Below, one piece after another: positions 800 through 63,117 of a stretch of DNA of 64,000 nt. The notes below the pieces were generated by a model. That model was not told the DNA's origin, made no database searches, and saw nothing but the letters and a program-made list of their open reading frames with translations. This stretch comes from Pegea sp. RAD2-039. Taxonomy: Eukaryota > Chordata > Thaliacea > Salpida > Salpidae. How positions within the stretch are numbered: position 1 is the stretch's first letter; each line of letters starts with the position of its first letter. The stretch spans positions 62,001-126,000 of the forward strand of contig JAQGEQ010000244.1 of the NCBI GenBank assembly GCA_034620365.1, given 5' to 3'. Both the position numbers and the translations under genes were made by a program.

Positions 800-1690
800 A
801 AAATTAGATTAGCATGTAATCATCGTAAGTTTTTTTATCAAATCAGGATTCCAATTGAATACAACGACAAACCACATTTTTTTCAAAAATCAAAAACTAT
901 AATATCGACAAATATTTGATGTCAAATTAATACTCACAGCAATTAATTTTATTAATTAAACTATTCAGGCAGTTTTAAATTTAAAATTTTGCTGTTATTT
1001 GTACTTGTTAGATTATTTTATCGACAAATGGTCGATAACAAAAATTGTGATTCAATATTGATTTCTTTTGTAAATAATCTTCTAAATACATGAGTTCCTA
1101 CTTCTTGGTGCGTTTTAAATTTTAGTTTTAAAGTTTTAAATTATTTTTCAAAATTAAAATTATTGCATTTACTTTTTTGTAAAGGTAATTGTATGAACAA
1201 AAAAAAAGCTTATCGATATCAAAATTTAAACTGATATTGGTATAATTTATATAAACGTTGAAGAACATTTCTTGATATAAAAAAATCTTCTCGTCTAGTA
1301 TTCGTCAGGAACAAGTGAATTTCTTAGAATTTTATTTATCTTTAAAATCTGGATTTATTTAAAACTGTGTAACGATTTTTTTTGGTTTGCTATCAATCTT
1401 ATAAAAAACAACTTTCTACTTTTTCGTTCATAAAACATTTTAGTTTTAAACTTTATAAGTTTACAAAATATAAACATAAAACTTTTATAGTGACATCTTG
1501 TTACTGAAAAATAGACAGTAAAATGCAACCGAATTTTACAAAATTGTCATTTTAAAGTTTAATTGACTAAACTTTAATACAAGTAAGACAAATCGCAAAG
1601 ACCAGGTTTATGCTGAAGTGTAATGAACTGAGAAGGTAAAATTTGTTTGAACTTTATTTGTATAATTTGAGTTTTTGTTTTTCTTAACAT
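800..1690 (+). repeat. Cassette-bearing repeat (family A), diverged copy
   Basis: Shares with 39,295-40,140 and 53,130-54,030 the order TTGAATACAAC, ATCGACAAATATTTGATG, cassette, AAAACTGTG, TATAGTGACATCTTGT, AGACAAATCGCAAA. It is rearranged within the cassette. Confidence 0.5.
1211..1311 (-). ncRNA. Cassette M1 (half inverted repeat)
   Basis: Element GACGAATACTAGAC (two changes), TATATC at 28, variable segment about 1,228-1,251, T4. Only one arm of the inverted repeat remains beside it. A complete inverted repeat (1,019-1,035) lies 180 bp further on, as if a second partial copy was inserted. The element-to-arm distance is nevertheless kept. Confidence 0.3.
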
Positions 1691-2891
1691 TTTTAAGTTT
1701 TATAAAAACAGTTGAGTAAAATTACTTTATACCAATAATAAAAATTTGCTTTTAATTTAGCGCAACATAAACATAATTCAATTCTTTTAAGGTTAATAAT
1801 AAAATTATAACAACGCGTTGTTTCCAAAATAATATTGAAATACAAATCGTTTAGAACTAGAAATCCAATATTTCATTATTTTTTTTTACAGAACATAAAA
1901 TTTATATTTATTCACAGAATATTTTTCTAAATTTGTCGTAAAATATGAAAATAAATAATTAAAAATTAAAATCTTAAAAGTAAAAAGCAGTTGAAACTCA
2001 AAGTGAAAATCATAAAACACCGCAAAAAACGCTTTTCAAAACTGTTAAACCGTTGTTACAAATAAATAACTATGATAAATGTTATGCTAAAGTCAATCAA
2101 TAGCTGTGAAGTTTCATGGTCACTTTCATGATTTGTAACAAAAAATATATTTATAATAGAACTCAATTCTTAAGAAGTTTCAAGTCTTCAATAGATTGGT
2201 GATTCCATTAATGACGCTGAGCTTAAATATCGTTAACTAGAGATTAAATAAAAAGGTTAAAAAGGATAATTATATAAAAATTATCAAAGAAATTATAAAA
2301 TATATACTTGTGTATTACATTTTACTTACAATGAAGTTTAAAACTTATTTATTTCTTATGTGAAAAAAGTGATTTATTTATAAATTAACATGTTTGTCAG
2401 TACAAAAAGAGAAAGCTTAAAATTTTTTTAAATAAATTAAAATTGAAAACACTTGTAATTCGCAGTATCTGCCAAAGTAATAGTGATAGTAGGTAGTTTG
2501 TTAGTTTTTTATTAAACCAAAATGAAAGCTTTAAGCAGAAATGATTTTATACGCAAAAATGTTAAAAAGCTTTTGAATTAAAGACAGTTAATATTCTAGA
2601 ATTTCAGTCGTTGAAAGCAAAACAAATCTTAAAAGTTGATGTTTTTTAATAAAACATATTTTGTGCCATTATTATTGCAAATAAAATGTTTTAGTTTTTT
2701 ACCCATTAAAGTTTTTCTTGAAATTCTTTTTCTTATTTCTTATCCAAGCAAACTTATAACTTAACAAAAATTATTTAAATAGTGTAAACAATTCTTCTCT
2801 AAGACAATAGATGATAATTTAACCAAATTACTATTGATACTAAACATATAAATTCGCGTTTAATGCCAAAAATATTTTCATTAGTAACCAC

Positions 2892-3009
2892 ATTCTTTCA
2901 TCAAAACTAGCATCATCAAATTGTTCTTCAGTAATTACGTCACCATCATAAACTAATTTTTGTTGAGTAACCTCTATTAGATTAGAAATAAAATGTGAAC
3001 ATCAAAATG
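2892..3009 (-). pseudogene. 118-bp exon-like block (DGDVIT), copy 1
   Basis: The minus strand shows ATGTTTTCAG, then exactly 118 bp, then GTGG. The frame reads FISNLIEVTQQKLVYDGDVI and then EEQFDDASFDERM. Unlike the other two copies it continues past ERM with TGG (Trp) into LLMKIFLALNANLYV before a stop. It has a TGA near its 5' end that the others lack. Coding-like acidic composition and an equal length in three places argue for a real ancestral exon. Family unknown. Confidence 0.4.
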
Positions 3010-3689
3010 CTGAAAACATTAAAGAAATATAAACGAACAACTTTCATAAGGGCAATTGTATAAAGTTTCGTTCGACATTAAAAGTCAATCACAAGTTTTA
3101 AATTTAACAAAATATTGAAATATTACTATTCGCCCATAGATAACGTAAAAAGGAAACAACAATTTTTGTTGTTTTTAACTCTTCTAAAATAAAAAAGATT
3201 GTTTAACTTGTAAAAAACTTTAATTATTGATCAAATAGATTATATCCGTAAAATATAGCGTAAATAACTGAAAATTTTTATCTTAAGGTCTTACCTGCTT
3301 TGAATTTTTATAGAGTTTTACTCATGAAATATTATAATTTTGTTAATTAGCAAATTATTTTGATATCACTAAATATTTATGGAATCATACATTCAGCATT
3401 TTTCTTCAAAAACTTTTGACGTTTTTACTTATGTTTAAAATTAATTAAATGATCAAAATATTTGAATTTTAAAAATTAATGTAAAATCTTCAGCTAATCA
3501 GTTGAAGTTAAAAAGAGTTAAAATAATAAATTTTACATCTTGTGTAATTAGAACTAATTAAAAAATGATTATTGAGAACCACATAAAATATAATAAATTA
3601 AAGCAAAATTGATTGTTTTGGTAAGTAAAAATGTTTTTATAACAATCTTATTAATGATTTTTGAGTTTTATGTTTCTATAGTAGAAAAA

Positions 3690-3765
3690 GTTGACGCTAG
3701 ACGTCGCTGAAGATAAATAATTTTGAAATCCTTGTATTGCTTTAGGCTATGTTTTTGTAAGTGAT
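3690..3765 (+). other. GACGCTAGACG core, copy a
   Basis: Reference copy of a dispersed motif of about 75 bp. GACG-CTAGA-CGTC can form a hairpin. CTGAAG and a later CTTCAG (CTTTAG here) can pair around a conserved middle (TTTTGAAATCCTTG). The motif ends GGCTATGTTTTTGTAAGT, which holds both a T5 and a splice-donor-like GTAAGT. It may be a small structured RNA or a short exon with donor. Lies 600 bp from cassette M2 in the same orientation. Confidence 0.4.
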
Positions 3766-4286
3766 ATTTGATAAATTGAATTTTAAGGTTTACTTTTAAA
3801 CTTTATTGAAATTATGAATAATTAAGTTTAAATTGAAAACAGAACAATTTTAACTACTAATTTTTCGTATCAATAAAAAAATAAAATTTTAAAAACAAAT
3901 TATTTATTTAACTTTGAATTCAGAAGTAAATTTAAACGTTTTAACATACTTTCTTCCTCTTATCAGTCAGACAAATAATTTTTTTCACTTATTTGACCTT
4001 ACAAAACATTCAAACACTTTTTTCAATAACTCTTGTGCTGAAATCTTCCAATAAAAACTAATTGACGGTTACAAAAATTTGACTCAACTTAGCGACTATG
4101 AATTTCCAAAGCATAAATTTTAAAAAATATCCTGAAAAAATAACGACCCTAATTAAAAAAATCCCTAATAAGTTAAATAAATTTCGCAAAAGCAATTTGT
4201 TTTTATTGTCAATATATAAAACTATTCTTATGATTCTAAATAATTTAAATTTTTTAATTGACTAATATTTTTCAAAAATAATTTTT

Positions 4287-4397
4287 CTCCGGACAAATAC
4301 TGGATGAAACAATGTTGTTATAATGAAAAACATTTTTCGTTATCATTATAATACACTGTGAACAGAGTAAATTTTTGTTATCGACTACTCGTCGATA
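4287..4397 (+). ncRNA. Small-RNA-like cassette M2
   Basis: Reference example of the family. Upstream element CTCCGGACAAATACTGGATG; TATAATG beginning at nucleotide 28 counted from the G of GACAAATA; about 27 bp later a variable segment (about 4,347-4,370); T5 at 4,372-4,376; inverted repeat TATCGAC-TACTC-GTCGATA at 4,379-4,397. The layout matches a PSE + TATA (U6-type) small-RNA gene ending in a T-run. Expression is inferred, not shown. It could instead be a conserved piece of a dispersed repeat. Confidence 0.4.
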
Positions 4398-5092: not shown

Positions 5093-5203
5093 TATCGACA
5101 AACGGTCGATATCAAAAATTATGTTTATTTGTTTCATTTCACGATTAAGATTAAAGATTATTTCTTTATATAAAAAATCTTCTCATCTAGTATTTGTCAG
5201 GAG
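5093..5203 (-). ncRNA. Cassette M3
   Basis: Element CTCCTGACAAATACTAGATG, TATATAAAG at 27, variable segment about 5,120-5,143, T5, inverted repeat with loop CGTTT. Duplicate of M7, sharing most of its variable segment. Confidence 0.4.
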
Positions 5204-8101: not shown

Positions 8102-8297
8102 TGTTTGAACTTATTAAAAAATCCTAAACTATCCTATCGGCAAACGAACATGTTTTTAGCAGTTATACAACTATTCTGAATTTCATGAAGTTTTCAGAGA
8201 CAAGTTTACTAACCAACTTCAACTAATTTGTTTTAAGGACATCGACAAGGTTGTCGACTTCAAAAAAATTGAATGCAATCGCAAGAAAAACTGCTAA
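8102..8297 (+). pseudogene. Coding relic (YNYSEFHEVFRDK), frameshifted
   Basis: Homologous to 44,986-45,180. The first part reads CLNLLKNPKLSYRQ, then a one-base length difference shifts frame. The second part reads YNYSEFHEVFRDKFTNQLQL and ICFKDIDKVVDFK. Its 3' end lies over the minus-strand cassette at 8,240-8,356, so IDKVVDF is encoded by the cassette's inverted repeat. No family recognised. Confidence 0.35.
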
Positions 8298-8356
8298 AGT
8301 TTCTTTAATTTATTCTTAGATTTATTAATTTCTTTCGGTCTAGAATTTGTCCGGAC
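8240..8356 (-). ncRNA. Cassette M4 (diverged)
   Basis: Element GACAAATTCTAGAC, TAAATC at 28, variable segment about 8,273-8,296, T7, inverted repeat with a 6-nt loop. Lies antisense to a coding relic. Related to M14. Confidence 0.3.
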
Positions 8357-10023: not shown

Positions 10024-10095
10024 AGCAGAGTGGCGCAGCGGAAGCGTGCTGGGCTCATAACCCAGAAGTCGATGGATCGAAACCTTCCTCTGCTA
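10024..10095 (+). tRNA. Initiator-type tRNA-Met (CAT)
   Basis: The 72-nt sequence begins AGCAGAGTGGCGCAGCGGAA and folds as a cloverleaf. The acceptor stem is AGCAGAG/CTCTGCT, the anticodon stem is CTGGG/CCCAG, the loop is CTCATAA with anticodon CAT, and the T arm contains the B-box core GATCGAAA. The A-type acceptor start and the GGG/CCC anticodon stem are hallmarks of animal cytosolic initiator tRNA-Met. Two points are odd. Base 33 is T, where animal initiators I know of usually have C. The T stem (GATGG/CCTTC) has one T-T mismatch where CCATC would pair. No T4+ run lies directly 3' of the gene; the first is 83 bp downstream. It may be functional, or a decaying copy, or the head of a tRNA-derived repeat. 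The identification is secure; its activity is not. Confidence 0.9.
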
Positions 10096-12579: not shown

Positions 12580-14916
12580 TTAGACAAATAAAAATGGCAT
12601 TGTAGGTAGTTCGTTGAGTTTACTTAAAATATTTTTAAAGGTAATTTTTTTTCTATTTATTTTAGAGATATTTTCTAAGATTGATAAGTATTCATTCAAC
12701 AAATTGGTCTTCAAATTGAGAGCATAGCTCTGATTAAAATTTCTGCATACTTTTGCAACAGTTACTTGAATGCAAGTTATTAGTTTAAAAAAACATTCTT
12801 CATTAGATGGAGTAATTCTATCATCCAACAAGGTAGGCAAACTCTTCAAAAAAAAGAAGAAACTTTGTAAAATTTGTATTATTAAGTCAGCAGAATTTGA
12901 AATGTTTCTCATCAAACTTCTTATCATTATCAGCCGTCCTTCAAAATTTATCATACTTAAATTATTCCATCCAATACAACAATGGAAATTTTTTCCAGTA
13001 AGAAAAAATTCTTGCATTAGTATAACAGCTCTTTCAGGTTCTTTAGTATAATCGATAAACTTAGGAACTAGCAATGTAAACAGCCAAACTTTTCGTTTTA
13101 GTAAAAATATTGAATCAAAAATTGATTTAATTTCATCTTTATTATTGCTTGATTGCTGTTGAAATTTCAGGATTATATCCTTTTTCAAATCATCTATTTT
13201 TTTTGATTCTGTAGTAATAAAATCTACAAGCAACCTTAAGAAACCATTCTTTAAGATAGAACTGATAAGACCAATTACACGATGTTTTTCTTTATCAAAG
13301 TATAAAAAAAAGTCTAAATAGTTTTGTGATGATCCTGGTTTTTCAATTTGGAAATTTGTGGATTCAAACGGAAATTCTGCAAAATCAAATAACTCTAGAG
13401 TAATTTTAGATGGTGATAAGAGCAATTGATGCAATAAACAATCGAAAAACGTTTTAAGCATCACGTCTTTTACAAACAAGTTGTCATATTTCTTTGTTTT
13501 ATCAAGAATCTTATAAAATATTTTATCTAAAAGTTGACATTTTTCACCACTTGAGTATTCTTTCGTAATTTTTCTATTTAAAAAGAAATCCTGCGACTTT
13601 TTCCTAGCAATATTAATCAGAAATTTTACTAAACAAATATTCAGTTGTTTCTTTAAAGCAAAAGCTAGAGTAACTAACAACAATATAATCCTCAGACTTT
13701 TAGAAATAGACCGGTATGTGTTTTGATCTCTAAAGCATTTTAAAACCGTTGAGTTTAATACTGAAAACAAAAAAACATCACTCGTAAGAGAAATTAAACG
13801 TTCATTGCTAAGATAAACTTGTTTTTCTTTTTCTTCAAGAATTTCTCCCAGTTTGTAATCATAATGACTGAAGTGTAAGCTCTTATAGATACTTCTGTTT
13901 ACATATAAACCGTTTGCAATCTTCTTCAATTCATTAGATTTAAAGCCTGGAAGTTTGTAAGAACAAACCAACTGTATTAACCAATCAAAACAAACTAAAG
14001 CTGACGAAAGCGTAGTAGTCAATGATTTCTCAGTCTCAATTACATGCTTGGTAAACTCAGTTTTGCATAATTTGCGAATCTCTTTTGAGCAAAAAGTTTG
14101 TCTAAAAACATATATTTGATTTGCATTTGATAAATGGACAAATAAAAGCAAGTCACAATACATTACAAGTTCTCTAATAAATGTGGCTGTTTTCACATAA
14201 GCTGAAGAGTAATAAAGTTGGCACTGATGAAAACATATAGATTTGTGAGCATACCCATCTAAAAATGACAATTATGTTTGCAATTTATTTAACCCAGATT
14301 GAAAATATGATCTTTTTGTCGGGAATGAAGAGAAAGAAAAGTATTTTATTAACTCAGCAAATCTCTCATTAGTTTGTTTAAAGTTTGTGTTTGAAGTTGT
14401 TATAAACACGTTTAGAATTTGTGACAAAAAACATGAAAAAGCAATTGTCTTAAAGTTCAGCAAAGTTTTAGATGAATCCAAATCTTCAGCAATTATCAAA
14501 CAATGTTTCAAAAGTTCCAAACAAACAAAATGTTCTTTCACTGATTTATCTTTATTTAAGGAATATGCCACTCCAAAGTGAAAAAATAGTGTTACTAAAA
14601 CCATTTCATATGAAAAGTTACTAACATTGAAATCTTTTAGCTTAAATACCCTAACAAAATTATCATCTTGATATATCCAATAAACGCATCCAGGTAAAGC
14701 AATTTTGTTTCTCATAAAAAGATGAGACATGCAATCAAGTTTATCGGTATCAAAATTATCACGATTGTATTTATGTTGAAGTTCTAAATTATTTTTGAAA
14801 ACTTCATTTGTAAAAATAAATTGAAACATTCTACCTTGCAAAATGTAGAACTTGTTTTCTTTTATCTTGTACTGTTTTACAAACTCGAAAAACTTATCAG
14901 CTTTTAAACTAGACAT
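12580..14916 (-). pseudogene. 778-codon single-exon gene, copy 1, one in-frame TAA
   Basis: This is a long minus-strand reading frame of about 779 codons from ATG (14,916) to TAA (12,580). It is interrupted only by TAA at 14,274-14,272, codon 215. The other two copies have TAT (Tyr) there, so this is a single T-to-A nonsense change. I do not recognise the family. The product is rich in Leu, Phe, Lys and Ser and looks all-helical, with no clear signal peptide. One hydrophobic patch (RIILLLVTLAFAL, near residue 405) is short for a membrane span. No catalytic motif is visible. There are no introns. Its upstream 2 kb is shared with copies 2 and 3 and separates it from a divergent zinc-finger gene. 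The frame is open on both sides of the stop, so the damage is recent, or is read through, or is a sequence error. This is the only copy with the full C-terminus, which ends in LPTMPFLFV. Confidence 0.7.
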
Positions 14917-16894
14917 TTTTATGGATTATCAGTCTGTAAAAATGATTTGTACATCTTTAACATGTGCAGAAGTATATAAAGAAACTATAAGGAAAATATA
15001 AAAATCAGTATCTTATACTGATTTGTTTAGCTTTACCCAAAGCATGAATAATTCAAATTAGTTAAATCTTAAATAATAGATAATGTGAGAACTTTTCAAA
15101 ATACATCTATGCACTTCTCTTTTATTACTTCATAGACTTAAAATTAACAATAACAACATAAAGGACAACAACGTTGTGGATATGTAAATAAATAATAGTA
15201 AATAAAACATTAAAACTTCTACAAACACTTGAAAATATTTTTAAGTTATTGCTAAAAGGTATTTATTTATAAAAACTTGTAAAAAATCTTCAAAGTTTAG
15301 TTTTAAACTAATATCTAAACTTATTATAATATTGTTTTTTAGTTTACCACAAATTGTTGAAAAATATACAAAATATGAGAAAAAACAGTTGCTAAATAGA
15401 AATTAGAAAAAAATAAAATCCTACTGTAAAATCAAACATAAAAGTGTTTGTAAATATCTCCAAAGTTTTATAGTACTTTTATATAAAACAGTTGATTAGT
15501 TTCATGTACAGTAAAAATAAACTATCAAAGGTTGTAGAAATTGATAGATTTATTAAAATTATTCCCTGTTATCGGTTTCTACAATGATTTTTCAGTTTTT
15601 TCTAAATGATATGTTGACTCAAAAGTGTATTTTTAATTTAAGAATACATTTTAAAACTTACTGTTTCTAAACTGGGTTTTAAAATAACATTTTTCTCTAT
15701 TTACATTAAAGTAGTATATATATAAAGCTTTTTCGTAGTGAACTTTTACTTATTTCTTCAATTTTTATAGCAGTTGAGCAATTAATAAACACATTAGATA
15801 CAAAAGTTTATTTATTTAATAACAACTTTAATATTAGCCCAAAATAAGAGAAAGCTGCTGATAAGATAACAACAAACACTAAAATTCAGCAAAATTATTT
15901 TATTAAAAAACAAAATCTGTGTCAAACAGGTTTTGTTTGTTAAAATCTAAACTTATTTTATTGTTCTTTTTTCATATACATGAGCTCGTAGAATAAATTA
16001 CAATGAATAATTTGTTGATTTGTATTTGTTAAGGATAATGAAGTATTGAATTATTTATGTAAATTGGTGTCAGATAAAAATAACAAATTTTTTAATAATT
16101 AAATTATAAAAAAGAATATATCTTTGGTTACTATTTTAAAAAAGTTTTAGAAATTTGGTATCTACAAATTATATCTTAATTAATGAAAACATGCAATATT
16201 GAAAAAATTGGTCTTAGTCTTGAACTTGGTATTGGTATTTTAATTTAAAAATATTTTTACTCAGAAGACTAAGGCTTTTTTTTCAATATTCATGTTAACA
16301 ACAACTGGAATTTTAAAAATAAAGACATTAACAACTTATTCAATTACCACAAAAATTACGATTTTGCTCGATTAAACTTATTTTTATCAGGAATTAAAAT
16401 ATAATAAGTATAAGTTGTCTTAAGACTTTTTGTAACTAATCAAATTTCAATTTAAGAATTTAATTTTGTTTTTGTAAGCTCTTTGAAATCTTCATTTGTT
16501 TGTAATAGCAAAAACTAACTTAACATTTGTAATTAATAAAATGTGTTTTAAATGAATTCAGTTTTAAACTTTTTAAAAATAGTTTATTTCAAACAATTAT
16601 AGAGCTAGTCAGCAAAAACAGAAAGAAAACCTTAATTAATTGTTAATTAAACTGTAAAATAGAAATGTCGTACCAAACAACAATTACAAAATTGAAACAT
16701 TGACACTCAACGTATGCTAGTATAAGGTTAGTTGAATTTACTTAACCAGGTTATTCAAATATATTTTTTAATATTCTTGGCAACAAAATAATTTGCTTAA
16801 ATTTTGAAAAAAACTTTTACTTCCTTCATATCATAAAATGATCAACTTTTTTTTGCTTAATAAAAATTATCAGAACTGATTTATTTCATAAATT
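14917..16894. other. Shared intergenic between copy 1 and zinc-finger gene
   Basis: About 2 kb between the divergent starts of the 778-codon gene and the zinc-finger gene. Most of it aligns with the upstream DNA of copies 2 and 3 (29,854-31,995 and 35,565-37,700). Differences are a block of about 550 bp missing here at about 16,182 and a stretch of about 320 bp at about 16,373-16,690 found only here. I see no reading frame or RNA gene. It could hold a bidirectional promoter, but no element is recognisable. Confidence 0.55.
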
Positions 16895-17633
16895 TTGTAT
16901 TTTGTAAAGTTTGATGGACAACAAAAAATTTATCGGAAGCGAAAGTTGTTATCAACTGAAAGTAACATCGACAATGTAACATCAAAAAAGAAACATTCAA
17001 ATAAATTATTTAATGCAGAGGATGGTTGGAACGAAATTATCGTTGATGAAATTAATTGTAACAATGAAAGAGAAAATATAACAAAGAAGAGTAATTCGTC
17101 AACCAAAAGTAATCAATCAGCAGAAGTAGTAAATGAAGAAAAAAAAATGTTTGCTTAAAAAAGTTTCAAATTGCAAAAACAAATATGAATGTTTGATTTG
17201 TTGTAGACAATTTAATTTCAAATCTCAACTTGTCAATTATGAAAGAACTCATACTGGTGAGAAACCATATGAATGTGTTGTTTGTTGAAGAAAGTTTGCT
17301 ATAAAATCAAGTCTTAAAAAACATGCAAGAACTCATACTGGCGAGAAACCATATGAATGCATTGTTTGTGGAAGAAGGTTTAGTCAAAGTTCAACCTTTA
17401 TAACACATGAAAGAAAACATACTTGTGAGAAACCATATGAATGTGTTGTTTGTGAAAGAAAGTTTGCTATAAAGTCAAGTCTTATAAAACATGCAAGAAC
17501 TCATACTGGCGAGAAACCATATGAATGTCTTGCTTGTGGAAAACAATTTTGTCATAAAGCAAGTCTTTCGTACCATCAAAGGGCTCAAAATAATCAGAAA
17601 CAAAATAATTTTTTTAAACCATACTGTAAATAA
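16895..17633 (+). pseudogene. C2H2 zinc-finger protein gene, damaged
   Basis: An 87-codon lysine- and asparagine-rich leader (16,895-17,158; includes KIYRKRKLLSTESN) is followed, in another frame, by five tandem C2H2 fingers (17,184-17,570) joined by [12 protein letters not shown] linkers. This would be a nuclear DNA-binding protein. Damage visible: an A9 tract near 17,138-17,146 puts leader and fingers out of frame by one base; finger 2 has TGA at 17,286-17,288 where other fingers have GGA or GAA; finger 1 has Tyr in place of the first His; finger 3 has Cys in its linker; finger 5 ends RAQ, lacking the last His. Fingers 2 and 4 are near duplicates (RKFAIKSSL). The finger frame ends with TAA at 17,631-17,633. 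An exon start just before FDGQQ (after GTAAAG) is possible. The gene is divergent from copy 1 of the 778-codon gene. Loss of function is likely unless the indel and TGA are errors. Confidence 0.75.
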
Positions 17634-22025: not shown

Positions 22026-22136
22026 CTCCGGACAAATACTGGATGAAACAACGTTTTTATATTAAGAAATATTCTTAGTTATCATTAAGAACCTAACTAA
22101 CCCATGTGAACTTTTGATATCGACTACTTGTCGATA
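22026..22136 (+). ncRNA. Cassette M5
   Basis: Element CTCCGGACAAATACTGGATG, TATATTAAG at 28, variable segment about 22,086-22,109, only T4, inverted repeat with loop TACTT. Inverted-duplicate partner of M17, with a nearly identical variable segment. Confidence 0.4.
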
Positions 22137-23538: not shown

Positions 23539-23648
23539 TATCGACATGTGGTCGATATCAAAAATTTCTATTGTTATCATGCCATAGGTAAAAGCTAGAA
23601 AACATTTCTAAATATAACGATATCTTTTCATCTAGTATTTGTCAGGAG
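23539..23648 (-). ncRNA. Cassette M6
   Basis: Element CTCCTGACAAATACTAGATG, TATATTTAG at 28, unique variable segment about 23,565-23,588, T5, inverted repeat with loop CACAT in sense direction. Confidence 0.4.
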
Positions 23649-24922: not shown

Positions 24923-25033
24923 CTCCTGACAAATACTAGATGAGAAGATTTTTTATATAAAGAAATAATCTTTAATCTTTAGCGTGAAATAAATAAAATA
25001 AACATAATTTTTGATATCGACCGTTTGTCGATA
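24923..25033 (+). ncRNA. Cassette M7
   Basis: Element CTCCTGACAAATACTAGATG, TATATAAAG at 27, variable segment about 24,983-25,006, T5, loop CGTTT. Homologous to M3. Confidence 0.4.
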
Positions 25034-25716: not shown

Positions 25717-25827
25717 TATCGACGAGTAGTCGATATCAAAAAATTATTCAGTTGATAGTGTACTACAATGATAACTAAAAATGTTTATCATTATAAAAAC
25801 GTTGTTTCATCTAGTATTTGTCCGGAG
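25717..25827 (-). ncRNA. Cassette M8
   Basis: Element CTCCGGACAAATACTAGATG, TATAATG at 28, variable segment about 25,744-25,767, T6, loop TACTC. Positional homologue of M2; its variable segment differs from M2 more than the flanks do. Confidence 0.4.
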
Positions 25828-27334: not shown

Positions 27335-27444
27335 CTCCGGAGAAATACTATATCAAAAGTAGTTATTATATTGAAGAACATTCTTTACAGAACAAACTTT
27401 TTTTCTGATAAACATTTATTTTTGGTATTCGTCTATGGTCGATA
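27335..27444 (+). ncRNA. Cassette M9 (degenerate)
   Basis: Element GAGAAATACTATAT, TATATTG at 28, variable segment about 27,395-27,418 containing an internal T7, T5 at the end, inverted repeat damaged. Probably decayed. Confidence 0.25.
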
Positions 27445-28039
27445 AACTAATCCTAATTTATTACTAAGAAATCTTAACAAGCATTCAAAATGAAAACTGC
27501 TTGAATGTTTCAAAAACAATAATTATTTGGCGTGAATCACAGTTTGTCGTTGTAGTCATCAGGATAGTGATTTAATTTACAAAAACTTACGATGATTACT
27601 ACCTAAAGATATTTTTCTGTAAAGAATTTGATTCATTTTAGCAGGTAGCAAGATAGTCAATACAAGAAGTTAGAAATAAGTAGCGATAGTGAGTTACAAA
27701 GTCATATTTTTATATTTTAGCTTAGATTTTCATTTTTCATTATTTCAAATTATTAAGCAATTCATAAAAAAACTTAATAATTTTTAGTTTTTTATGAAAA
27801 TTTTATATTATAAAAAGTTAAAAATATTTTTTGATTTTGATTTTGATTTTATTTTTTTAGTTTTCCTTCATGCAATGTCTCTACAAGAGTTTTATTTCCA
27901 TATTTTGATAAATTATAATTATTGTGCTTTTATATCTATTAGACAAATATTGTTGCTCAGTGACTTTAAGATTCCAGTTCGTTTTTTTTTTATATTTATA
28001 TCAGTTTTATTAAAACTCATACAATCAGCAATATATAAA

Positions 28040-28155: not shown

Positions 28156-29853
28156 TTAAGGAATTCTTGGAAGGTTTAAAACTTTCTGTAAGATAGAACT
28201 GATAAGACCAATTACACGATGTTTTTCTTTATCAAAGTATAAAAAAAAGTCTAAATAGTTTTGTGATGATTCTGGCTTTTCGATTTGAAAATTTGTGTAT
28301 TCAAACAGAAATTCTACAAAAGCAAAAAACTCTAGTGTAATTTTAGATGGTGATAAAAGCAATTGATGCAATAAACAATCAAAAAACGTTTTAAGCATCA
28401 CGTCTTTTACAAACAAGTTGTCATATTTCTTTGTTTTATCAATAATTGTATAAAACATTTTATCTAAAAGTTGACATTTTTCACCACTTGAGTACTCCTT
28501 TGTATGTTTTATATTTAAAAAGCAATCTTGTACCTTTTTCCTTGCATTATTAATCAGCAATTTTACTAAACAAATATTCAGTTGTTTCTTTAGAGCAAAA
28601 GCTAAAGTAACTAACAACAATATAATCCTCAGACATGTAGAAATAGGCCGGTAGGTGTTTTGATTTCTTAAGCATTTTAAAATCGTTGAGTTTAATACTA
28701 AAAAAAGGAAAATGTTACTTATAAGAGAAATCAAACGTTCATTGCTAAGAAAAACTTGTTTTTGTTTTCCTTTAAGACTTTCTCCCAGTTTGTAATCATA
28801 ATGACTGAAGTGTAAGCTCTTATAGATACTTCTGTTTACATATAAACCGTTTGCAATCTTCTTTAATTCATTAGATTTAAAGCCTACAAATTTGTAAGAA
28901 CAAACTAACTGTATTAACCAATCAAAACAAACTAAAGCTGACGAAAGCGTAATAATCGATGATATTTCAGTCTCAATTACATGCTTGGTAAACTCAGTTT
29001 CACATAATTTGCGAATCTCTTTTGAGCAAAAAGTTTGTCTAAGAACATATATTTGATTTGCATTTGATAAATGGACAAATAAAAGCAAGTCACAATACAT
29101 TACAAGCTCTCTAATAAATGTTGCTGTTTTCTCATCAGCTGAAGAGTAACAAATTTGGCACTGATGAAAACAGATAGTTTTGTGAGCATACCCATCTAAA
29201 AATGACAGATATGTTTGCAATTTATTTAACCCAGATTGATTATGTGACGTATTTGTCGGGGATGAAGAGAAAGAAAAGTATTTTATCAACTCAACAAATC
29301 TCTTATTAGTTTGTTTACAGTTTGTTTTTGAAGTTGTTATAAACACGTTTAGAATTTGTGACAAGAAACATGAAAAAGCAATTGTCTTAAAGTTCTGCAA
29401 AATGTTAGATGATTCCAAACCTTCAGCAATTATCAAACAATGTTTCAAAAGTTCTAAACCAACAAAATGTTCTTTCACTGATTTATTTTTCTTTAAAGAA
29501 TATCCCACTCCAAAGTAAAAAAAAAGTTTTACTAAAACCATTTCATATGAAAAATTACTAACCTCAAAATCTTGTAGCTTATATACTTTAACAAAATTAT
29601 CATCTTGAGATATCCAATAAACGCATCCAGGTAAAGCAATTTTGTTTCTCAGAAAAAGATGAGACATGCAATCAAGTTTATCGGTATCAAAGTTATCACG
29701 ATTGTATTTATGTTGAAGTTCTAAATTATTTTTGAATACTTCATTTGTAAAAATGAATTGAAACATTCTACCTTGCAAAATGTAGAACTTGTTTTCTTTT
29801 ATCTTGCACTGTTTTACAAACTCAGAAAACTTATCAGCTTTTAAACTAGACAT
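28156..29853 (-). pseudogene. 778-codon gene, copy 2, 3'-truncated (565 aa)
   Basis: Starts at the same ATG context as copy 1 (ATGTCTAGTTTAAAAGC) and is open through the position where copy 1 has TAA (Tyr here). Similarity to copy 1 stops at 28,176-28,177, after GLISSIL. The last nine or so codons (KVLNLPRIP) come from unrelated AT-rich DNA. About 200 C-terminal residues are missing. Protein identity to copy 1 over the shared part is high, with many conservative changes. Product unknown: soluble, helical-looking, with Cys-rich patches such as HQCQICYSS around residue 235. Its 2-kb upstream DNA is that of copies 1 and 3. It could still make a shortened protein. Confidence 0.7.
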
Positions 29854-39294: not shown

Positions 39295-40140
39295 TTTGTA
39301 ACTCAAATCATTATCCTGTTGATTAAGAATTTCAAAAACTTGAATTTTGACTAATATTTGACGTCAAATTGAAAATCCTACCAATTAATATTATTAAATA
39401 AAACATCCAATTAGTTTTACAATTAACATTTTCTAGTAATTATCCAATTATTCTATCGACAAATAGTCGATATCAAAAAATTACGAGACCAACGAAATGA
39501 TAACTAAATGTCAAAGAACATTTCATTATTTAAAATAATCTTCTCATCTAGTATTTGTCAGGAAAAAGTGTTTTTTTTAATTTTTTAGCTATCTTTAAAA
39601 GTTTGATTTATGTAAAACTGTGAGACAATATTTATTTCTTTTGCTATCGATCTTATAAAAACATATTTGGTACTTCTTAGTCCATAAAACATTTTAGTTT
39701 TAAACTGCTTAATGATTTTTTAAAACTAAGATTATTACAAATACTACTTATATAAATCTAATTGTATGAGTATGAATAAACCTTGTATGAATATTAATAA
39801 ACAATATTTTGTAAACTTAAAGTCACTGAGTAACACTATATGTCTGACAGATAAGAGGATACAACGTTTATGAAATTATAAACATAAACATAAAACTAGT
39901 ATAGTGACATCTTGTGACTAAAAATAAATAGTAAAATGCAAGTTAATTTTACAAAAGTTTCAATTTAATGTTTAATGTACTAAACTTTAATAAAAGTGAT
40001 ACAAATCGCAAATAATTTGTTGAAGTCAGGTTTACTCAGAATCTTAATGAATTGACAAGGTAGAATATGATTGAAATTTTTTCTTAGTATATTTTAAGTA
40101 ATGTTTTTTTGTAACTTATTAAAGTATCATAAAAACGGTT
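39295..40140 (+). repeat. Cassette-bearing repeat (family A)
   Basis: Direct relative of 53,130-54,030 (about 85-90% by eye). Contains the cassette 39,454-39,564 and the TGTCTGACAGATAAGAGGA motif at about 39,841. Confidence 0.55.
39454..39564 (-). ncRNA. Cassette M11
   Basis: Element TCCTGACAAATACTAGATGA, TAAATAATG at 28, unique variable segment about 39,481-39,504, T6, inverted repeat with loop TATTT. Confidence 0.4.
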
Positions 40141-41276: not shown

Positions 41277-41385
41277 TATCGACGAGTAGTCGATATCAAA
41301 AATTAACGTTTCAACATTGTTATTCAATGATAACTAAGAATATTTCTTAATATAAAACGTTGTGTCATCTAGTATTTGTCCGGAG
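41277..41385 (-). ncRNA. Cassette M12
   Basis: Element CTCCGGACAAATACTAGATG, TATATTAAG at 27, variable segment about 41,302-41,325, T5, loop TACTC. Flanks are nearly the same as those of M5, M8 and M17, but the variable segment is different from all three. Confidence 0.45.
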
Positions 41386-43203: not shown

Positions 43204-43316
43204 TATCGACAAATGGTCGATATCAAAAATATTTAGAATACTACAGTTGATGTAATCTAAGCCTGAAAAACATTCTTCATCATAAAAACTTCTTTAAATC
43301 TAGTGTTTTTCCGGAG
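43204..43316 (-). ncRNA. Cassette M13 (diverged)
   Basis: Element GAAAAACACTAGAT, TATGATG at 28, variable segment about 43,233-43,256, T5, inverted repeat with loop CATTT. Confidence 0.35.
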
Positions 43317-44985: not shown

Positions 44986-45180
44986 TTGTTGAAATATTGT
45001 TTGAACTTATTACAAAATCCTAAGCTATCCTATCGACAAAATGCATGTTTTCAGCGGTTATACAACTATTCTGAATTTCATGAAGTTTTCAGAGACAAGG
45101 TTACTAACCAATTACAACTAATTTGTTTTAAGGACATCGACAAGTTTGTCGATTTCAAATATGTGATTTTGGACTTGTGA
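44986..45180 (+). CDS. Exon-like ORF (YNYSEFHEVFRDK), intact copy
   Basis: The 64-codon open frame (opening with TTG, so the 5' limit is unknown) reads CLNLLQNPKLSYRQNACFQR, then YNYSEFHEVFRDKVTNQLQL. Composition is coding-like, and it is conserved with 8,102-8,297 at about 90% nucleotide identity. The C-terminal IDKFVDF overlaps the inverted repeat of the antisense cassette at 45,135-45,254. It may be an exon of an unrecognised protein or of a mobile element. Confidence 0.35.
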   Translation: MLKYCLNLLQNPKLSYRQNACFQRLYNYSEFHEVFRDKVTNQLQLICFKDIDKFVDFKYVILDL

Positions 45181-45254
45181 CAAGACCAACAAGTTGTTAA
45201 TTGATATTTCTTTATATATATATTAATTTAGTTCAATCTAGTATTTGTCCGGAC
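45135..45254 (-). ncRNA. Cassette M14 (diverged)
   Basis: Element CCGGACAAATACTAGATT, TATATATATA at 28, variable segment about 45,171-45,194, only T3, inverted repeat ATCGAC-AAACTT... with a 6-nt loop. Antisense to the YNYSEFHEVFRDK ORF. Confidence 0.3.
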
Positions 45255-47154: not shown

Positions 47155-47620
47155 GTATTTATAATAGTGTTAGTTTTAAATCATTTTAAATTTTAAAACT
47201 GAAATGTATTATGTATTAGGAAGTCGGGAATAATTTTTTTATAATATTGATATCAAAAGAAAAAAAAATGTCACACATTTGTTAAAAATCAAACTTTCAA
47301 ATATAAGTCTAGATTTTAAATCTTTTCTAGACAAATACAAGATGAAAATCTATTATTATATCAAGAAGTGTTTCTTACTTTCATGGCAAGATCTGAAACA
47401 GATTTCTATTTTTGATATCGACTATGTGTCTATAAATTAATCCAATAATTGTATCAAAAAATAACTGCAAACTTTCAAATTTAAAATTGCTTTGAATGTT
47501 TCATTGATAATATTAATTGACTTGATTTTCAATTTTCTTTTGACTTTTAATTATAAAATCTTTGTTTGCATTATGCTATTGTATGTCAGTGAAACATAAA
47601 ACATCTTTTATTTAATTGTC
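47155..47620 (+). repeat. 470-bp block, copy 1
   Basis: Direct repeat of 62,252-62,722 at about 90% identity, including a cassette whose variable segment is the same in both copies. Confidence 0.65.
47325..47434 (+). ncRNA. Cassette M15
   Basis: Element TAGACAAATACAAGATG, TATATC at 28. The variable segment (about 47,385-47,408) contains the hairpin ATCTG-AAA-CAGAT. T5; one stem base of the final inverted repeat is lost (GTCTATA). Same payload as M23. Confidence 0.35.
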
Positions 47621-47703
47621 TTTTAGTTTTGAAACTTTGAACAAATTATTATTTGTCGTTGTAAAAATTATAAGCGATTATTTGATCAGCAATTATTGAC
47701 TAA

Positions 47704-47905
47704 GTCGTTGATGGTGAGGACGTAATTGAAATTGATGACTTCATTGATGTTGATGGAGTTATTGATGTTGATGACATGGTTGATGTTGATGACGTCATTG
47801 ATGCTGGTGAAGTCAAATGTCTATGAAGTCATTAATGTTAATAGGGTCATTGAAGTCGATAAAGTCATTGATGTCGATAAAGTCATTGATGTTTATATAA
47901 AATAT
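47704..47905 (+). repeat. 18-bp minisatellite (GTTGATGACGTCATTGAT-like)
   Basis: About 11 imperfect 18-bp units. One frame reads EIDDFIDVDGVIDVDDMVD until TGA at about 47,823. After a shift a second run reads VINVNRVIEVDKVIDVDK. GC-richer than its surroundings. It may be a decayed low-complexity coding repeat or simply a minisatellite. Confidence 0.7.
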
Positions 47906-49177: not shown

Positions 49178-49288
49178 TTCCTGATAAACACTAGATGAAA
49201 AGATTTTGATATACCTGGAAATTTTCCTTACCTTCTAATTTAATACTTCCAACAAAACTTAATTTTGGATATCGACCATTTGTCGATA
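49178..49288 (+). ncRNA. Cassette M16
   Basis: Element TCCTGATAAACACTAGATG, TATACC at 28, unique variable segment about 49,238-49,261, T4, inverted repeat with loop CATTT. Confidence 0.35.
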
Positions 49289-50294: not shown

Positions 50295-50405
50295 TATCGA
50301 CAAGTAGTCGATATCAAAAATTCACATGGGTTACTTAGGTTCTCAATAATAACTAAGAATATTTCTTAATATAAAAACGTTGTTTCATCAAGTATTTGTC
50401 CGGAG
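50295..50405 (-). ncRNA. Cassette M17
   Basis: Element CTCCGGACAAATACTTGATG, TATATTAAG at 28, variable segment about 50,322-50,345 like M5, T5, loop TACTT. Confidence 0.4.
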
Positions 50406-53129: not shown

Positions 53130-54030
53130 ACATTCATTTAGCTAGTAACCATCGAACGTTTTTGTAAATCAAATCACAATCCCATTGAGTACAACAATAA
53201 ACCATAATTTCTTCTAGATTTATAAACTATAATATCGACAAATATTTGATGCCAATTTAAAATTCATGCCAATTATTATTATTAAACGAAATAATCAAGC
53301 AGTTGTTAATTTAAAAGTTTGCCGTTACTTGTTAGTTGTATCTTTCGAATTATTCTATCGACAAATGGTCGATATCAAAATTTAATTACATCATCATAAA
53401 TGATAAAAACCATAATGTAAGTCAACGAACATTTCTTTATATAAAAAATCTTCTCATCTAGTATTTGTCAGGAAAAAGTGATTTTTTAAAATCTTTCATC
53501 TATCTTTAAAAGTTTGATTAATGTAAAACTGTGAGACGATTTTTATTTTTTTTTGCTATCAATCTTATAGAAAAATATTTCCTACTCTTAGTGATAAAAT
53601 ATTTTAGTTTTAAACTGTTTATTGATTTTTTAAAACTAAGACTTTTACAAATACTACTGATATAAAGCTAATTGTATGAGTATGAATAAACCTTGTATGA
53701 ATATTAATAAACAATGTTTTGTAAGCTCAAAGTCACTGAGTAACACTATTTCTCTCACAAATAGGAGGATACAACGTTTGTAAGTTAAAAAAAAATAAAC
53801 ATAAAACTGTTATAGTGACATCTTGTGACCGAAAAATAAATAGTAAAATGCAATTAAATTTTACAAAAGTTTCAGTTTAAAGTTCAATTTACTAAACTTT
53901 AATAAAAGTGAGAAAAAATACAAATAGTTTTTTTAAGTGAGGTTTACGCTGATTCTTATTGAATTGATAAGGTATAATTTGTTTGAATTTTTTTTTTTGT
54001 ATAATTTAAGTAATGTTTTTCTTAATGTTA
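53130..54030 (+). repeat. Cassette-bearing repeat (family A)
   Basis: Direct relative of 39,295-40,140, with cassette 53,356-53,474 and the ATAGGAGGATACAACG block at about 53,762. Confidence 0.55.
53356..53474 (-). ncRNA. Cassette M19
   Basis: Element TCCTGACAAATACTAGATGA, TATATAAAG at 27, variable segment about 53,391-53,414 and about 8 bp longer than usual, T4, loop CATTT. Confidence 0.35.
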
Positions 54031-56654: not shown

Positions 56655-56771
56655 ATCCGGACAAATACTAGATTTAAAAAAGTTTATATAAATTAGGCTT
56701 ACATATCAAAAGTTTGCATATGCAATAACAAACATTGATGTTTTTATTTTGAAGTCGACTAAATGTCGATG
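56655..56771 (+). ncRNA. Cassette M20 (diverged)
   Basis: Element ATCCGGACAAATACTAGATT, TATAAATT at 28, variable segment about 56,715-56,738, T5 and T4 runs, inverted repeat TCGAC-TAAAT-GTCGA. Confidence 0.3.
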
Positions 56772-59377: not shown

Positions 59378-59499
59378 CATCGACAAGTTGTCGATTTCAA
59401 AATGTTTACTAAAAGAAAGCATTCCAAAAATACAAATTTCAATAACATTTCTAACAATAATGATTTAAAAACTTCTTTTTATCTAGAGTTTGTCCGGAC
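59378..59499 (-). ncRNA. Cassette M21 (diverged)
   Basis: Element GTCCGGACAAACTCTAGAT, TAAATC at 28, variable segment about 59,416-59,439, T4, inverted repeat ATCGAC-AACTT-GTCGAT. Confidence 0.3.
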
Positions 59500-59950: not shown

Positions 59951-60007
59951 CGCAGTCGTTAATATCGCCAAATTTCTTGAAGCAATCTCTTAGTTAATCT
60001 GTAACAT
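59951..60007 (-). pseudogene. Broken duplicate of the RRM fragment
   Basis: Matches codons for DCFKKFGDINDC of 57,317-57,448. It has a one-base deletion and an AAA-to-TAA change just before, and stops matching after GACTGCG, before RNP1. Confidence 0.55.
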
Positions 60008-60360: not shown

Positions 60361-60434
60361 GTTGATGCTAGACGTCGCTGAAGATGAATAATTTTGAATT
60401 CCTTGCATTGCTTCAGGCTATGTTTTTTTAAGTG
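60361..60434 (+). other. GACGCTAGACG core, copy i
   Basis: Direct duplicate of copy h with GATGCTAGACG. The donor-like GT is lost (TTTTTTAAGT). Confidence 0.4.
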
Positions 60435-61541
60435 ATACTTGATAACTTGAATTTTAAGGTTTACTTTTAAACTTTGTTGATATTATGAATATTAAGGTTT
60501 AAATTGAAAACAAAACTATTTTAACATTTAAGCTTTTCGTTTCAAAGCAAATTAAAGTTTTAAAAGCAAACATTTTTTTTAACTTTTTAGTTTATATTTT
60601 TTTGTAATAAAGATCTATGAACTAATTACTATTAATTTTTATCACATGCTGCTAATTGAAAACATTTTTAATTTACATTTTATTAATTTCAAACATTTTA
60701 AGCTTTTATTTTTGTAGAGACGAAAATGTAAATATATCAAGAAATCACTTTTGTCACTAAAACAAAAATAAAAAAATCTTTAACTGAAATATATCAAAAC
60801 TCTTTATTCTTACTTGAATTACAGATTTTTTCCTCACCTTTTTGTAAAAGTTTTTGTGTTTCTTTAATTGAAAAATAATAGTGATTTGCTTGTAGGCGTA
60901 AATCATTGACTGATAGAATTTTCAAAAAAAGAAGAATTTCCGTTGATGTTTCTTTTCCTATTTACTTGAATCTTTTATGTAATTTTTAACGGCGTAGATA
61001 TGATAAGTTTGTTGAAACTATAGTGATCATAAAATTTTATTGCTCTTTCTTGCTTGTGTCATAAGGTTTCTAGTTATTTAAATTTAAAAGTTATTTTATT
61101 GTTTTCTTTTTGTAAACTTTTTTTCGGTTTTTTTATGATGTTTAACGAGAGTTTCGAATCGTTTCTCCTTCAAGTATTTAATTTCTAAATTTTTATATTC
61201 AAATGTTTTGATAAATTAATAAAATTGTTTAATGTATATGTACGAGTTGTATGTTAAGTATCCAAAAAAGATTTTATTGATAGTTTTATAACATTTTTAT
61301 TAATCTATAGTTATCGTTACAATTCATTATCTTTTTTTTCAGTTTCATACAATTAGCTTTACATAAAAAGTATAGGTAGCCGTTTTAGTTTTAAAAAATC
61401 ATTTAAGATTTTGAAACATAAATGTATTATGCACTGATAAGTAGGAAATATTTCATTTAATAAGATTGTTTACAAAAGAAATAAAAAATATTACCTAAAT
61501 TATACTATTAAACAAAATACAAATTTAAAAAACTAACTTTT

Positions 61542-61651
61542 CTCCTGACAAACACTAGATGAAAATATATCCTTATACTAAGAAATATTTTCTATCTTCC
61601 ACCAAATCTTTTTTCAAGGTAGAAATTTTTGAGATCGACTATATGTCGATA
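61542..61651 (+). ncRNA. Cassette M22
   Basis: Element CTCCTGACAAACACTAGATG, TATACTAAG at 28. The variable segment (about 61,602-61,625) contains an internal T6. T5 at the end; inverted repeat with loop TATAT. Confidence 0.35.
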
Positions 61652-62251
61652 AATGAATCCAGTAAATACAAACAACAGCGAACCTTCAAATTAAAAACTA
61701 ATTTGAATATTTCATTTGATAATACTAATTAGCGTGATTTTCTATTTTACATCAAATATGTCGATATTACATTTTTTGAATTTTGATGAAATTGTGGTTC
61801 ATCTTTGTATTCAATGTGAAAATGATTTGATTTACAAAAACTTACGATGATTACAAACTAAAAATATTAAAAATTTTTTTTTTAAAGAGTATCAATAAAT
61901 TAAGTCAAAAGTAAAAGAGTCAAAAAATTAGTTTAGCAATATTGAGTTGTAATATTGTTTTTGTTTTTAATTTTATACTTAAATTTATATTTTTCAATCT
62001 TACAAATTATTATGCAATTCATGAAAAATCATATTATTAGTAGAAGTTAAAAATATTATTTTGTTTTTTTCAACTTTTCAGTTGGTAGATGTTTCTATTA
62101 TAGTTTTATTTTTATAATTTTAAAGATTATAACTCTTGTTCTTTTATATCTATTAGACATATAATGTTGCTCAGTTACTATAAGATTCCAGTACGTTCTT
62201 TTTAAATAATTATATCAGTTTGATTAAAACTCAAATAATTAGCAATATATT

Positions 62252-62722
62252 AAAAGGTATTTGTAATAGTGTTAGATTTAAATCATTCTGAAATTTAAAA
62301 CTGTATTTTCCGTGTATTATGTAATAAGAAGTAGGAAATAATTTTTCTATAAGATTAATATCAAAAGAACAAAAATGTCACACATTTGTAAAAAATCAAA
62401 CTTTCAAATATAAATTTAGATTTTAAATCTTTTCTAGACAAATACAAGATGAAAAACTATTACTATATCGAAAAGTGTTTCCTAACTTTCATGGCTAGAT
62501 CTGAAACAGATTTCTATTTTTGATATCGACTATGTGTCTATAAAGTAATCCGATAATTGTATCAAAAAAATAACTGCAAACTTTCAATTTTAAAACTGCT
62601 TTGAATGTTTCATTAATAATATTACTTGACCTTGTTGTCAATTTTCTTTTGACTTTTAATTATAAAATCTTTGTTCGCATTATGCTATTGTGTGTCAGTG
62701 AAATATAAAAAATCTTTTATTT
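62252..62722 (+). repeat. 470-bp block, copy 2
   Basis: Direct partner of 47,155-47,620. Similarity ends abruptly near TCTTTTATTTG. Confidence 0.65.
62432..62542 (+). ncRNA. Cassette M23
   Basis: Near-identical to M15 (direct 470-bp duplication): TATATC at 28, same hairpin-bearing payload with one or two changes, T5, and the same lost stem base. Confidence 0.35.
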
Positions 62723-63001
62723 GCTACTTTTTCCAGTCATAAAATGTCTCTGCTTCATTTTTGAGTTTCATTTTTTTATTTTATAGAACTAATATTTTGT
62801 GTTAACATCTGTTAGACCTGTACTTTGTCTTTTTTAACTTGAGTGTACAACAAACACTTTTTAAATGTTTAGAAATATCAACGAGTAAAGTCATTGAATT
62901 TTTTTTACATCAAAAACAATTTAAACTATAAGAGACTAAACTCTCGTTAATTAAATTAAATTAAGTTTACATGAAAAATTGAATTTTGAAAATTGAGTTT
63001 T

Positions 63002-63117
63002 GTCCAGACAAATACTAGATTAAAGGATATTAATAAATCTAAACAAGTATTAAAAGGCAATTAATTTTTCATCCATTAATTCAATTGAAAGAATTTGAAA
63101 TCGACATCTTGTCGATA
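63002..63117 (+). ncRNA. Cassette M24 (diverged)
   Basis: Element CCAGACAAATACTAGATT, TAAATC at 28, variable segment about 63,062-63,085 containing T5, final run only T3, inverted repeat ATCGAC-ATCTT-GTCGAT. Confidence 0.3.

What the first reader, a model, noticed from the sequence alone, without database searches (positions are those of the whole stretch)
1211..63117. 22 dispersed cassettes with U6-like promoter layout
Seen: 22 segments of about 110 bp on both strands (10 plus, 12 minus) share a core GACAAATACTAGAT and, much further on, TATCGAC-N5-GTCGATA. Counting from the G of GACAAATA, a TA(T/A)A-like element begins at nucleotide 28 in 18 copies and 27 in 4 (M3, M7, M12, M19). M13 reads TATG. 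This includes copies whose intervening bases are otherwise unrelated (M4, M9, M13, M14, M20, M21, M24). Known: rigid PSE-to-TATA spacing is the signature of type 3 (U6-type) Pol III promoters, and SNAPc-type motifs also drive individual nematode 21U-RNA loci. Inference: these are or were individually promoted tiny RNA genes, a dispersed small-RNA gene system in this animal.
Basis: partly seen in the sequence, partly recalled or inferred. Interest (0 to 1): 0.92.

Follow-up and report, generated by a model that had tools for sequence, protein, structure and literature searches.

The report
Hypervariable snRNA-like gene family in animal
The 22 repeated segments look like tiny genes for RNAs built like the cell's small nuclear RNAs, with a constant promoter and tail but a fast-changing front end, members of a large family in this genome whose function is unknown and could be to recognise other RNAs.

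Summary
In detail: 22 copies (10 plus, 12 minus), TATA-like element 28 or 27 nt from the core. They lie in long diverged repeats, but are not just repeat debris. The core matches the promoter element (PSE) of this genome's own U2, U3, U5, U6, RNase MRP and RNase P genes. The TATA spacing is that of the Pol II class (U2, U3, U5: 28), not the Pol III class (U6, MRP, RNase P: 31-35), so 'U6-like' is wrong in class. Genome-wide: 279 exact copies against 0 in the reversed control; a second class with another hairpin, 226 against 0. Best reading: a large family of Pol II, U7-like Sm-class RNA genes with a diversifying 5' end, perhaps a guide. Transcription, Sm binding and targets are untested; no target was found.

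The parts
1182..1311 (-). cassette 1306: PSE and TATA kept, hairpin lost (reads TATCGAT and then a T-rich stretch); probably dead
4287..4397 (+). cassette 4292: PSE, TATA at 28, variable segment, Sm-like site, hairpin
5093..5203 (-). cassette 5198, TATA at 27
8241..8356 (-). cassette 8351
22026..22136 (+). cassette 22031; with up to 2 mismatches its variable segment recurs only in cassette-bearing contigs plus one chance-level site
23539..23648 (-). cassette 23643
24923..25033 (+). cassette 24928, TATA at 27
25717..25827 (-). cassette 25822, complete example
25809..25827 (-). PSE of cassette 25822 (5 bases before the core, and the core)
25790..25795 (-). TATA element of cassette 25822 (+28 to +33)
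25745..25766 (-). hypervariable segment of cassette 25822, from the inferred transcription start (+57) to the Sm site
   Evidence: the start is inferred from U2 and U3 spacing
25736..25744 (-). Sm-type site of cassette 25822
25717..25735 (-). 3' hairpin TATCGAC-TACTC-GTCGATA of cassette 25822
27335..27445 (+). cassette 27340, degenerate (rearranged hairpin)
39454..39564 (-). cassette 39559
41277..41385 (-). cassette 41380, TATA at 27
43204..43316 (-). cassette 43311, TATG in place of TATA
45136..45254 (-). cassette 45249
47325..47434 (+). cassette 47330 (one mismatch in the stem)
49178..49288 (+). cassette 49183
50295..50405 (-). cassette 50400
53356..53474 (-). cassette 53469, TATA at 27
56655..56771 (+). 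cassette 56660 (same cassette in L146); its promoter stretch is the closest of the set to the U7-candidate promoter (33 of 46), but cassettes come as close to a U3 promoter (best 32)
59378..59499 (-). cassette 59494
61542..61651 (+). cassette 61547
62432..62542 (+). cassette 62437 (one mismatch in the stem)
63002..63117 (+). cassette 63007 (same cassette in L147)

Best explanation
Each cassette is, or descends from, a minimal small nuclear RNA gene of the Pol II class. SNAPc binds the PSE and TBP the TATA element 28 nt on; Pol II starts near +57; the RNA of about 50-60 nt consists of a 5' segment of mostly 21-34 nt that differs from gene to gene, a canonical Sm-type site, and a short 3' terminal hairpin. 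The conserved modules would give synthesis, Sm-ring assembly and stability; the exposed hypervariable 5' segment would be the part that acts, most simply by base-pairing as the 5' end of U7 snRNA does. Shown: the PSE match to the genome's own genes, the Pol II-type spacing, the Sm-like site, the hairpin, the accelerated divergence of the 5' segment, two classes with 279 and 226 exact-pattern copies. Inferred: SNAPc and TBP binding, transcription, start site, Sm binding, base-pairing. Open: the target, and whether selection or local hypermutation drives the divergence.
For: PSE: U2, U3, U6 and MRP genes read CACAAACACTAAAC or close, U5 CACAAATATCAAAC, the RNase P gene (94 bits) CACAAACACTAGAT; cassettes GACAAATACTAGAT, some GACAAACACTAGAT. 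TATA: U2 28 with start at 57 in 11 of 12; U3 24-28, start 57 (two genes); U5 26-32, start 54; U6 31-35 in 10 of 11; MRP 33; cassettes of the window 27-28. Sm-like site against the hairpin: RAT3-6GR in 52 of 109 distinct cassettes, a further 42 with T3+GR, 11 weaker, 4 other; this was not part of the class A fetch. 27 different hairpin loops in 109. Hypervariability: 66 pairs from 79 cassettes, flank mismatch about 0.10, PSE 0-0.04, 0.2-0.4 from about +58 to the Sm site, then 0-0.09 in its T run and G, 0.14 at its last base. Disjoint close pairs: segment identity 0.706 against flank 0.916, corrected ratio 4.3, below flank in 26 of 34, in the lowest 5% of same-length flank windows in 20 of 34. 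Class B: PSE, TATA, variable segment, Sm site, hairpin GTTGAA-N-TTCAAC, 226 exact hits of hairpin plus Sm end against 0, and the same valley. Class A hairpins sought without the PSE: 34 of 39 on contig C91 carry the exact 13-nt PSE core upstream (compared).
Against: No expression data exist here. The 109 class A cassettes were fetched and filtered by PSE and by TCGAC/GTCGA, so the low divergence of PSE and stem is partly by design; the 24 taken were also chosen for TAWA at 28. Of four window groups only A shows one clean valley; B shows a weak dip, C several valleys also outside the cassette, D none. In 8 of 34 disjoint close pairs the segment is not more diverged than the flank; for more distant pairs 12 of 18 and ratio 2.2; class B 7 of 9 and ratio 2.6. 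Short spikes of divergence also lie just after the TATA element (+32 to +36, up to 0.39). Within class A the stem hardly varies, so it gives no covariation. No match to a known snRNA family. No target: one segment recurs only in cassette-bearing contigs plus one chance-level site in a LINE-like coding stretch, another matches only itself; local exact matches do not exceed shuffles. Some copies may be uncollapsed haplotypes: 17 of 80 fetched loci have a partner of 98% or more in the set or the window.
Confidence: 0.66

Rival explanations
1. Spliced leader RNA genes with hypervariable leaders: the variable segment is the leader exon, the Sm site and hairpin are the intron part.
For: Hypervariable leaders of 22 nt with an Sm-binding site flanked by hairpins are known in cyst nematodes (PMC6362198, passages). 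Size of the variable segment fits.
Against: A splice donor is needed. GT is absent from the segment in 26 of 109 and from +50 to the hairpin in 17 of 109; GT frequency 0.76 against 0.69 in shuffles, no excess of GTA or GTR in class A; in class B GTR 0.50 against 0.39 but GTA 0.18 against 0.32. No conserved dinucleotide island in the segment. Leaders need not evolve faster than flank.
Confidence: 0.1
2. 21U-type piRNA loci driven by a SNAPc motif, the variable segment being the piRNA.
For: SNAPc-related promoters drive single nematode piRNA loci (PMC6436959, passages); length of the segment; one PIWI-type gene exists here.
Against: No excess of T at +3 of the inferred start (26 of 109). Sm site and hairpin have no role there. 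Three Argonaute loci were found, two AGO-like and one PIWI-like by my reading of the translations, unlike the many Argonautes of clade V nematodes (recalled). [quoted passage not shown]
Confidence: 0.07
3. Pol III U6-type tiny RNA genes, as first read; the RNA ends in the T run and the hairpin is a DNA element.
For: PSE and TATA present; a run of T at a suitable place for a Pol III stop.
Against: Spacing 27-28 instead of 31-35. The G and A after the T run (106 and 97 of 109) fit an Sm site. The hairpin with a free loop, and a different stem in class B, point to RNA.
Confidence: 0.08
4. Non-functional repeat: a piece of a duplicated 2-3 kb unit or mobile element with a captured snRNA promoter, now decaying.
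For: Cassettes sit in long homologous repeats; at least two of 22 are broken (1306, 27340).
Against: Decay would not be expected to keep an Sm site and let only the stretch between start and Sm site run ahead of the flanks, in two classes, nor to keep the exact PSE core upstream of 34 of 39 hairpins.
Confidence: 0.11

Closest known systems
U7 snRNA
   Same: Pol II, PSE promoter, about 60 nt, 5' segment then Sm-type site then one 3' hairpin (recalled). A sub-threshold U7 candidate here (L074, 31.8 bits, cut-off 34) has PSE CACAAACACTAGAT and TATA at 28.
   Different: U7 has its own Sm site (AAUUUGUCUAG in the Rfam consensus) and is one or few genes with a constrained 5' end (recalled); cassettes have the spliceosomal-type site, hundreds of copies and a hypervariable 5' end; no Rfam match.
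Hypervariable spliced leader RNAs of cyst nematodes (Heterodera, Globodera) and Trichinella
   Same: variable 5' part of about 22 nt, Sm site, hairpins (PMC6362198, passages)
   Different: no splice donor signal here; twenty-one leaders in Heterodera glycines against hundreds of copies here; faster than flank evolution here (not tested there)
Nematode SNAPc-related piRNA (21U-RNA) loci
   Same: snRNA-type promoter for single tiny RNA loci, often clustered (PMC6436959, passages)
   Different: TATA, Sm site and hairpin here; no YRNT start
Dictyostelid Class I RNAs
   Same: short RNAs with an upstream element about 60 nt from the start and a highly variable part (PMC7919456, passages)
   Different: there a terminal stem and an 11-nt motif, 18-39 genes per species and perhaps Pol III; no Sm site in the passages I saw
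HSUR RNAs of herpesvirus saimiri
   Same: Sm-class RNAs outside the spliceosome that work by base-pairing (PMC6763288 title and abstract start, PMC12687793 abstract start, in the listing)
   Different: a few viral genes (recalled), not a large hypervariable family

Membership tests
Pol II-class snRNA-type gene (SNAPc/PSE) | PSE as in the genome's own snRNA genes | tested here: met
Pol II-class snRNA-type gene (SNAPc/PSE) | promoter spacing of the Pol II class of this genome | tested here: met
   27-28 against 28 in U2 (11 of 12), 24-28 in U3, 26-32 in U5
Pol II-class snRNA-type gene (SNAPc/PSE) | transcribed by Pol II with trimethylguanosine cap | not testable with these tools
   no RNA data
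Sm-class RNA | Sm site before a 3' hairpin | tested here: met
   94 of 109 with T3+GR against the hairpin; the hairpin itself was part of the filter
Sm-class RNA | bound by Sm proteins | not testable with these tools
   no binding data
U7 snRNA | U7-type Sm site and Rfam U7 match | tested here: not met
   (one class A cassette and four class B loci scanned with Rfam at an E-value threshold; whole window at gathering)
U7 snRNA | 5' end pairs with the histone downstream element | not tested
   -
Spliced leader RNA | splice donor after the leader | tested here: not met
   GT missing in 26 of 109 segments, no clear enrichment
Spliced leader RNA | leader found on mRNAs | not testable with these tools
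   no transcriptome
21U-RNA locus | YRNT start with T at +3 | tested here: not met
   Y at +56 in 74 and R at +57 in 73 of 109, but T at +59 only in 26 of 109; the start is inferred
Type 3 Pol III (U6) gene | PSE-TATA spacing of the genome's U6, MRP and RNase P genes | tested here: not met
Dictyostelid Class I RNA | terminal stem plus 11-nt motif | not tested
   no model search made; definition from passages

The most novel reading that the evidence does not exclude
An animal genome holds a repertoire of hundreds of U7-like Sm-ring RNAs whose 5' ends are diversified by selection or targeted mutation, so that each ribonucleoprotein recognises a different RNA: a germline-encoded, non-Argonaute guide RNA system, possibly against fast-changing invaders.
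Probability: 0.3. Interest if true: 0.96.

Novelty: new variant of a known kind. Interest (0 to 1): 0.82.

Why it matters
Sm-class RNAs are known as a small set of conserved genes (recalled). Hundreds of copies, with promoter and Sm site held and the 5' end racing ahead of its surroundings, would be a new way to make many specific RNAs, and would ask what they recognise. The genome also seems to tell Pol II from Pol III snRNA-type genes by the PSE-TATA distance, with TATA in both, a kind of rule reported for land plants (PMC9841428, passage). Both claims can be tested with one RNA-seq library.

Tried and rejected
Common-descent-only reading: rejected because divergence is uneven inside the cassette. 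Spliced leader: no donor signal. 21U: no start signature. Structure inside the variable segment: mean z -0.3 to -0.4 against shuffles, so hardly a folded domain. Targets: local exact matches in 349,903 bases no better than shuffles (the two longest hits were cassette copies that my filter missed); genome search of two segments gave no convincing target; the site at C240 reads like LINE reverse transcriptase in the sense direction (L192, my translation by eye), about 0.3 such sites expected by chance by my own estimate. Dropped rows: 158 unique records, 109 kept as cassettes (17 window, 68 places, 24 places); the 49 dropped are mainly hits of the opposite-strand motif GACAAATATTTGATGTC with hairpin at 112-120. 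Window cassettes 25822, 56660 and 63007 are in the set through copies identical over 170 bases (L151, L146, L147); 1306 and 27340 are not in it. Literature for such a family: the listings showed none; the library is open-licence PubMed Central only.
Full report
OBSERVATION. The window (22.9% G+C, base counts) lies at C266:62001-126000 of an unnamed 105.7 Mb genome. The 22 segments are present, 10 plus and 12 minus, with the stated TATA spacing. They lie inside long repeats that share descent. The exact composite pattern occurs 279 times in the genome and 0 times reversed.

THE CORE IS A PSE. Rfam finds U6 and U2 genes, U3, U5 and RNase MRP, RNase P (94 bits). Upstream of them stands CACAAACACTAAAC or a near variant; the RNase P gene has CACAAACACTAGAT, and some cassettes read GACAAACACTAGAT. 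By base composition alone, 10 or more of 12 matches to ACAAAYACTARA at a given place have probability about 0.0007.

THE CLASS IS POL II. Counting from the base before ACAAA, TATA starts at 28 and the RNA at 57 in 11 of 12 U2 genes examined (the other has no TATA and starts at 56); U3 24-28 with start at 57 (two genes); U5 26-32 with start at 54. U6: TATA at 31-35 in 10 of 11 (one without), start at 62-63 in 10 of 11 (L020 at 57); MRP 33-35, start at 61; RNase P 32 (read). I examined 11 of 13 above-cut-off U6 hits and 12 of 19 U2 hits. Cassettes of the window have 27-28. Over the 109-cassette set TAWA starts at 28 in 67, and at 27, 29 and 31 in 20-21 each, several of these being runs of TATATA. 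Which polymerase makes which RNA is established knowledge (list in PMC6436959, passage).

SM SITE AND HAIRPIN. Right before the hairpin, 94 of 109 distinct cassettes have T3 or more followed by G and A or G (52 in the strict form RAT3-6GR); 11 are weaker, 4 other. The Sm site was not part of the class A search. The stem was part of it (TCGAC exact, GTCGA with at most one mismatch), so its constancy says little; the loop was free and takes 27 forms. This is the tail of Sm-class RNAs.

HYPERVARIABLE SEGMENT. In five near copies of the window (group A), 20-bp identity lies mostly between 0.8 and 1.0 from -580 to +250, with dips to 0.73 at about -110, and falls to 0.47 at +59. Group B (two copies) shows a weak dip there, group C a valley there and others outside the cassette, group D none. 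Over 66 pairs from 79 cassettes the mismatch rate is about 0.10 in both flanks, 0-0.04 in the PSE, and 0.2-0.4 from about +58 up to the Sm site, where it falls to 0-0.09 (0.14 at the last base); there is a second short spike just after the TATA element. The left edge is the transcription start expected from U2 and U3. With every cassette used once, close pairs have segment identity 0.706 against 0.916 in the flank, a corrected ratio of 4.3; the segment is below flank in 26 of 34 pairs and in the lowest 5% of same-length flank windows in 20 of 34. More distant pairs: 12 of 18 and 8 of 18, ratio 2.2. Class B: 7 of 9 and 4 of 9, ratio 2.6. The segment has 21-34 nt in 108 of 109 and 18 in one; the 109 fall in 53 groups at 75% identity. 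Segments hardly fold better than shuffles.

A SECOND CLASS. The search for PSE plus TATA (432 hits, some of them one PSE with several TATA frames, against 29 reversed) led to contig C92. There and on C102, C134, C64, C23 and others stands another hairpin, GTTGAA-N4-6-TTCAAC, after TTTGGA: 226 exact hits against 0 (this pattern does not ask for a PSE). 25 loci were read, with a PSE-like core and a TATA element in each by eye; 29 pairs of 19 loci on C102 show the same valley of divergence. Its C102 members have the PSE of the U2 and U3 genes or one change from it in most. If the classes are homologous, several stem pairs changed on both sides; if not, the plan arose twice.

ASCERTAINMENT AND COPY NUMBER. 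Most class A cassettes were fetched by PSE and hairpin; 24 of 109 came from one search, which also asks for TAWA at 28. As a check, the hairpin plus Sm end was searched alone (171 hits against 0): 34 of the 39 on C91 end exactly where a PSE-bearing cassette ends. The assembly may hold both haplotypes in places: 17 of 80 fetched 0.6-kb loci have a partner of 98% or more identity among these loci or the window, the others do not (only part of the genome could be compared). So 279 and 226 are copies in the assembly, not a count of working genes.

WHAT IT DOES. The plan is that of U7 snRNA. A U7 candidate (below the Rfam cut-off) has PSE CACAAACACTAGAT and TATA at 28, but the Rfam alignment starts at +42, which does not fit a start near +57. 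Cassette promoters resemble its promoter and that of U3 about equally. The cassettes tested do not match Rfam U7 or other families. I infer an RNA with an Sm ring whose free 5' end pairs with something. No target was found, but pairing as short as that of U7 would not be seen. Selection and local hypermutation both remain open.

ORGANISM. Three Argonaute loci, read as two AGO-like and one PIWI-like, and a C2H2 zinc-finger ORF point to an animal; a clade V nematode is unlikely. No name could be given.

VERDICT.

Noticed in passing
L010-L018, L024-L035, L045, L049, L058, L072: In this genome Pol II-type (U2, U3, U5) and Pol III-type (U6, MRP, RNase P) genes nearly all have PSE and TATA and differ by about 5 nt in spacing; land plants also use spacing, but there Pol II has the longer one (recalled).
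   Followed up: partly
12580-14925, 28156-29862, 33326-35478 (minus): Three copies of a gene-like stretch for a protein of unknown kind (longest ORF 568 aa, two copies split in two ORFs), no Pfam match above cut-off; three relatives at 51-54% identity without name.
   Followed up: partly
17289-17633 (plus): C2H2 zinc-finger ORF of 84-bp repeats.
   Followed up: no
25598, 50176, 41158, 43085, 53237 (plus), 4515, 22255 (minus) and others: A PSE-like motif GACAAATATTTGATGTC faces the cassette from about 115-125 nt beyond the start of the hairpin on the other strand, weakly conserved, without TATA at 28 by eye.
   Followed up: partly
L075 (C191), variable segment: The variable segment of this lone cassette is G+C-rich and contains a stretch resembling a tRNA D arm (my reading); with up to 3 mismatches it matches only itself in the genome.
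   Followed up: partly
10024-10095 (plus): tRNA-Met gene.
   Followed up: no
47702-47893: 18-bp tandem repeat, about 11 copies.
   Followed up: no
L036/L085 (C1), L047 (C12), L062 (C35): PSE plus TATA before sequences without Rfam match at the thresholds used; possibly other small RNA genes.
   Followed up: no
G000:C95:3639-7553 and C103:514-4428: Two cassettes at the same spacing on two contigs in opposite order: recent duplication or uncollapsed haplotype.
   Followed up: partly
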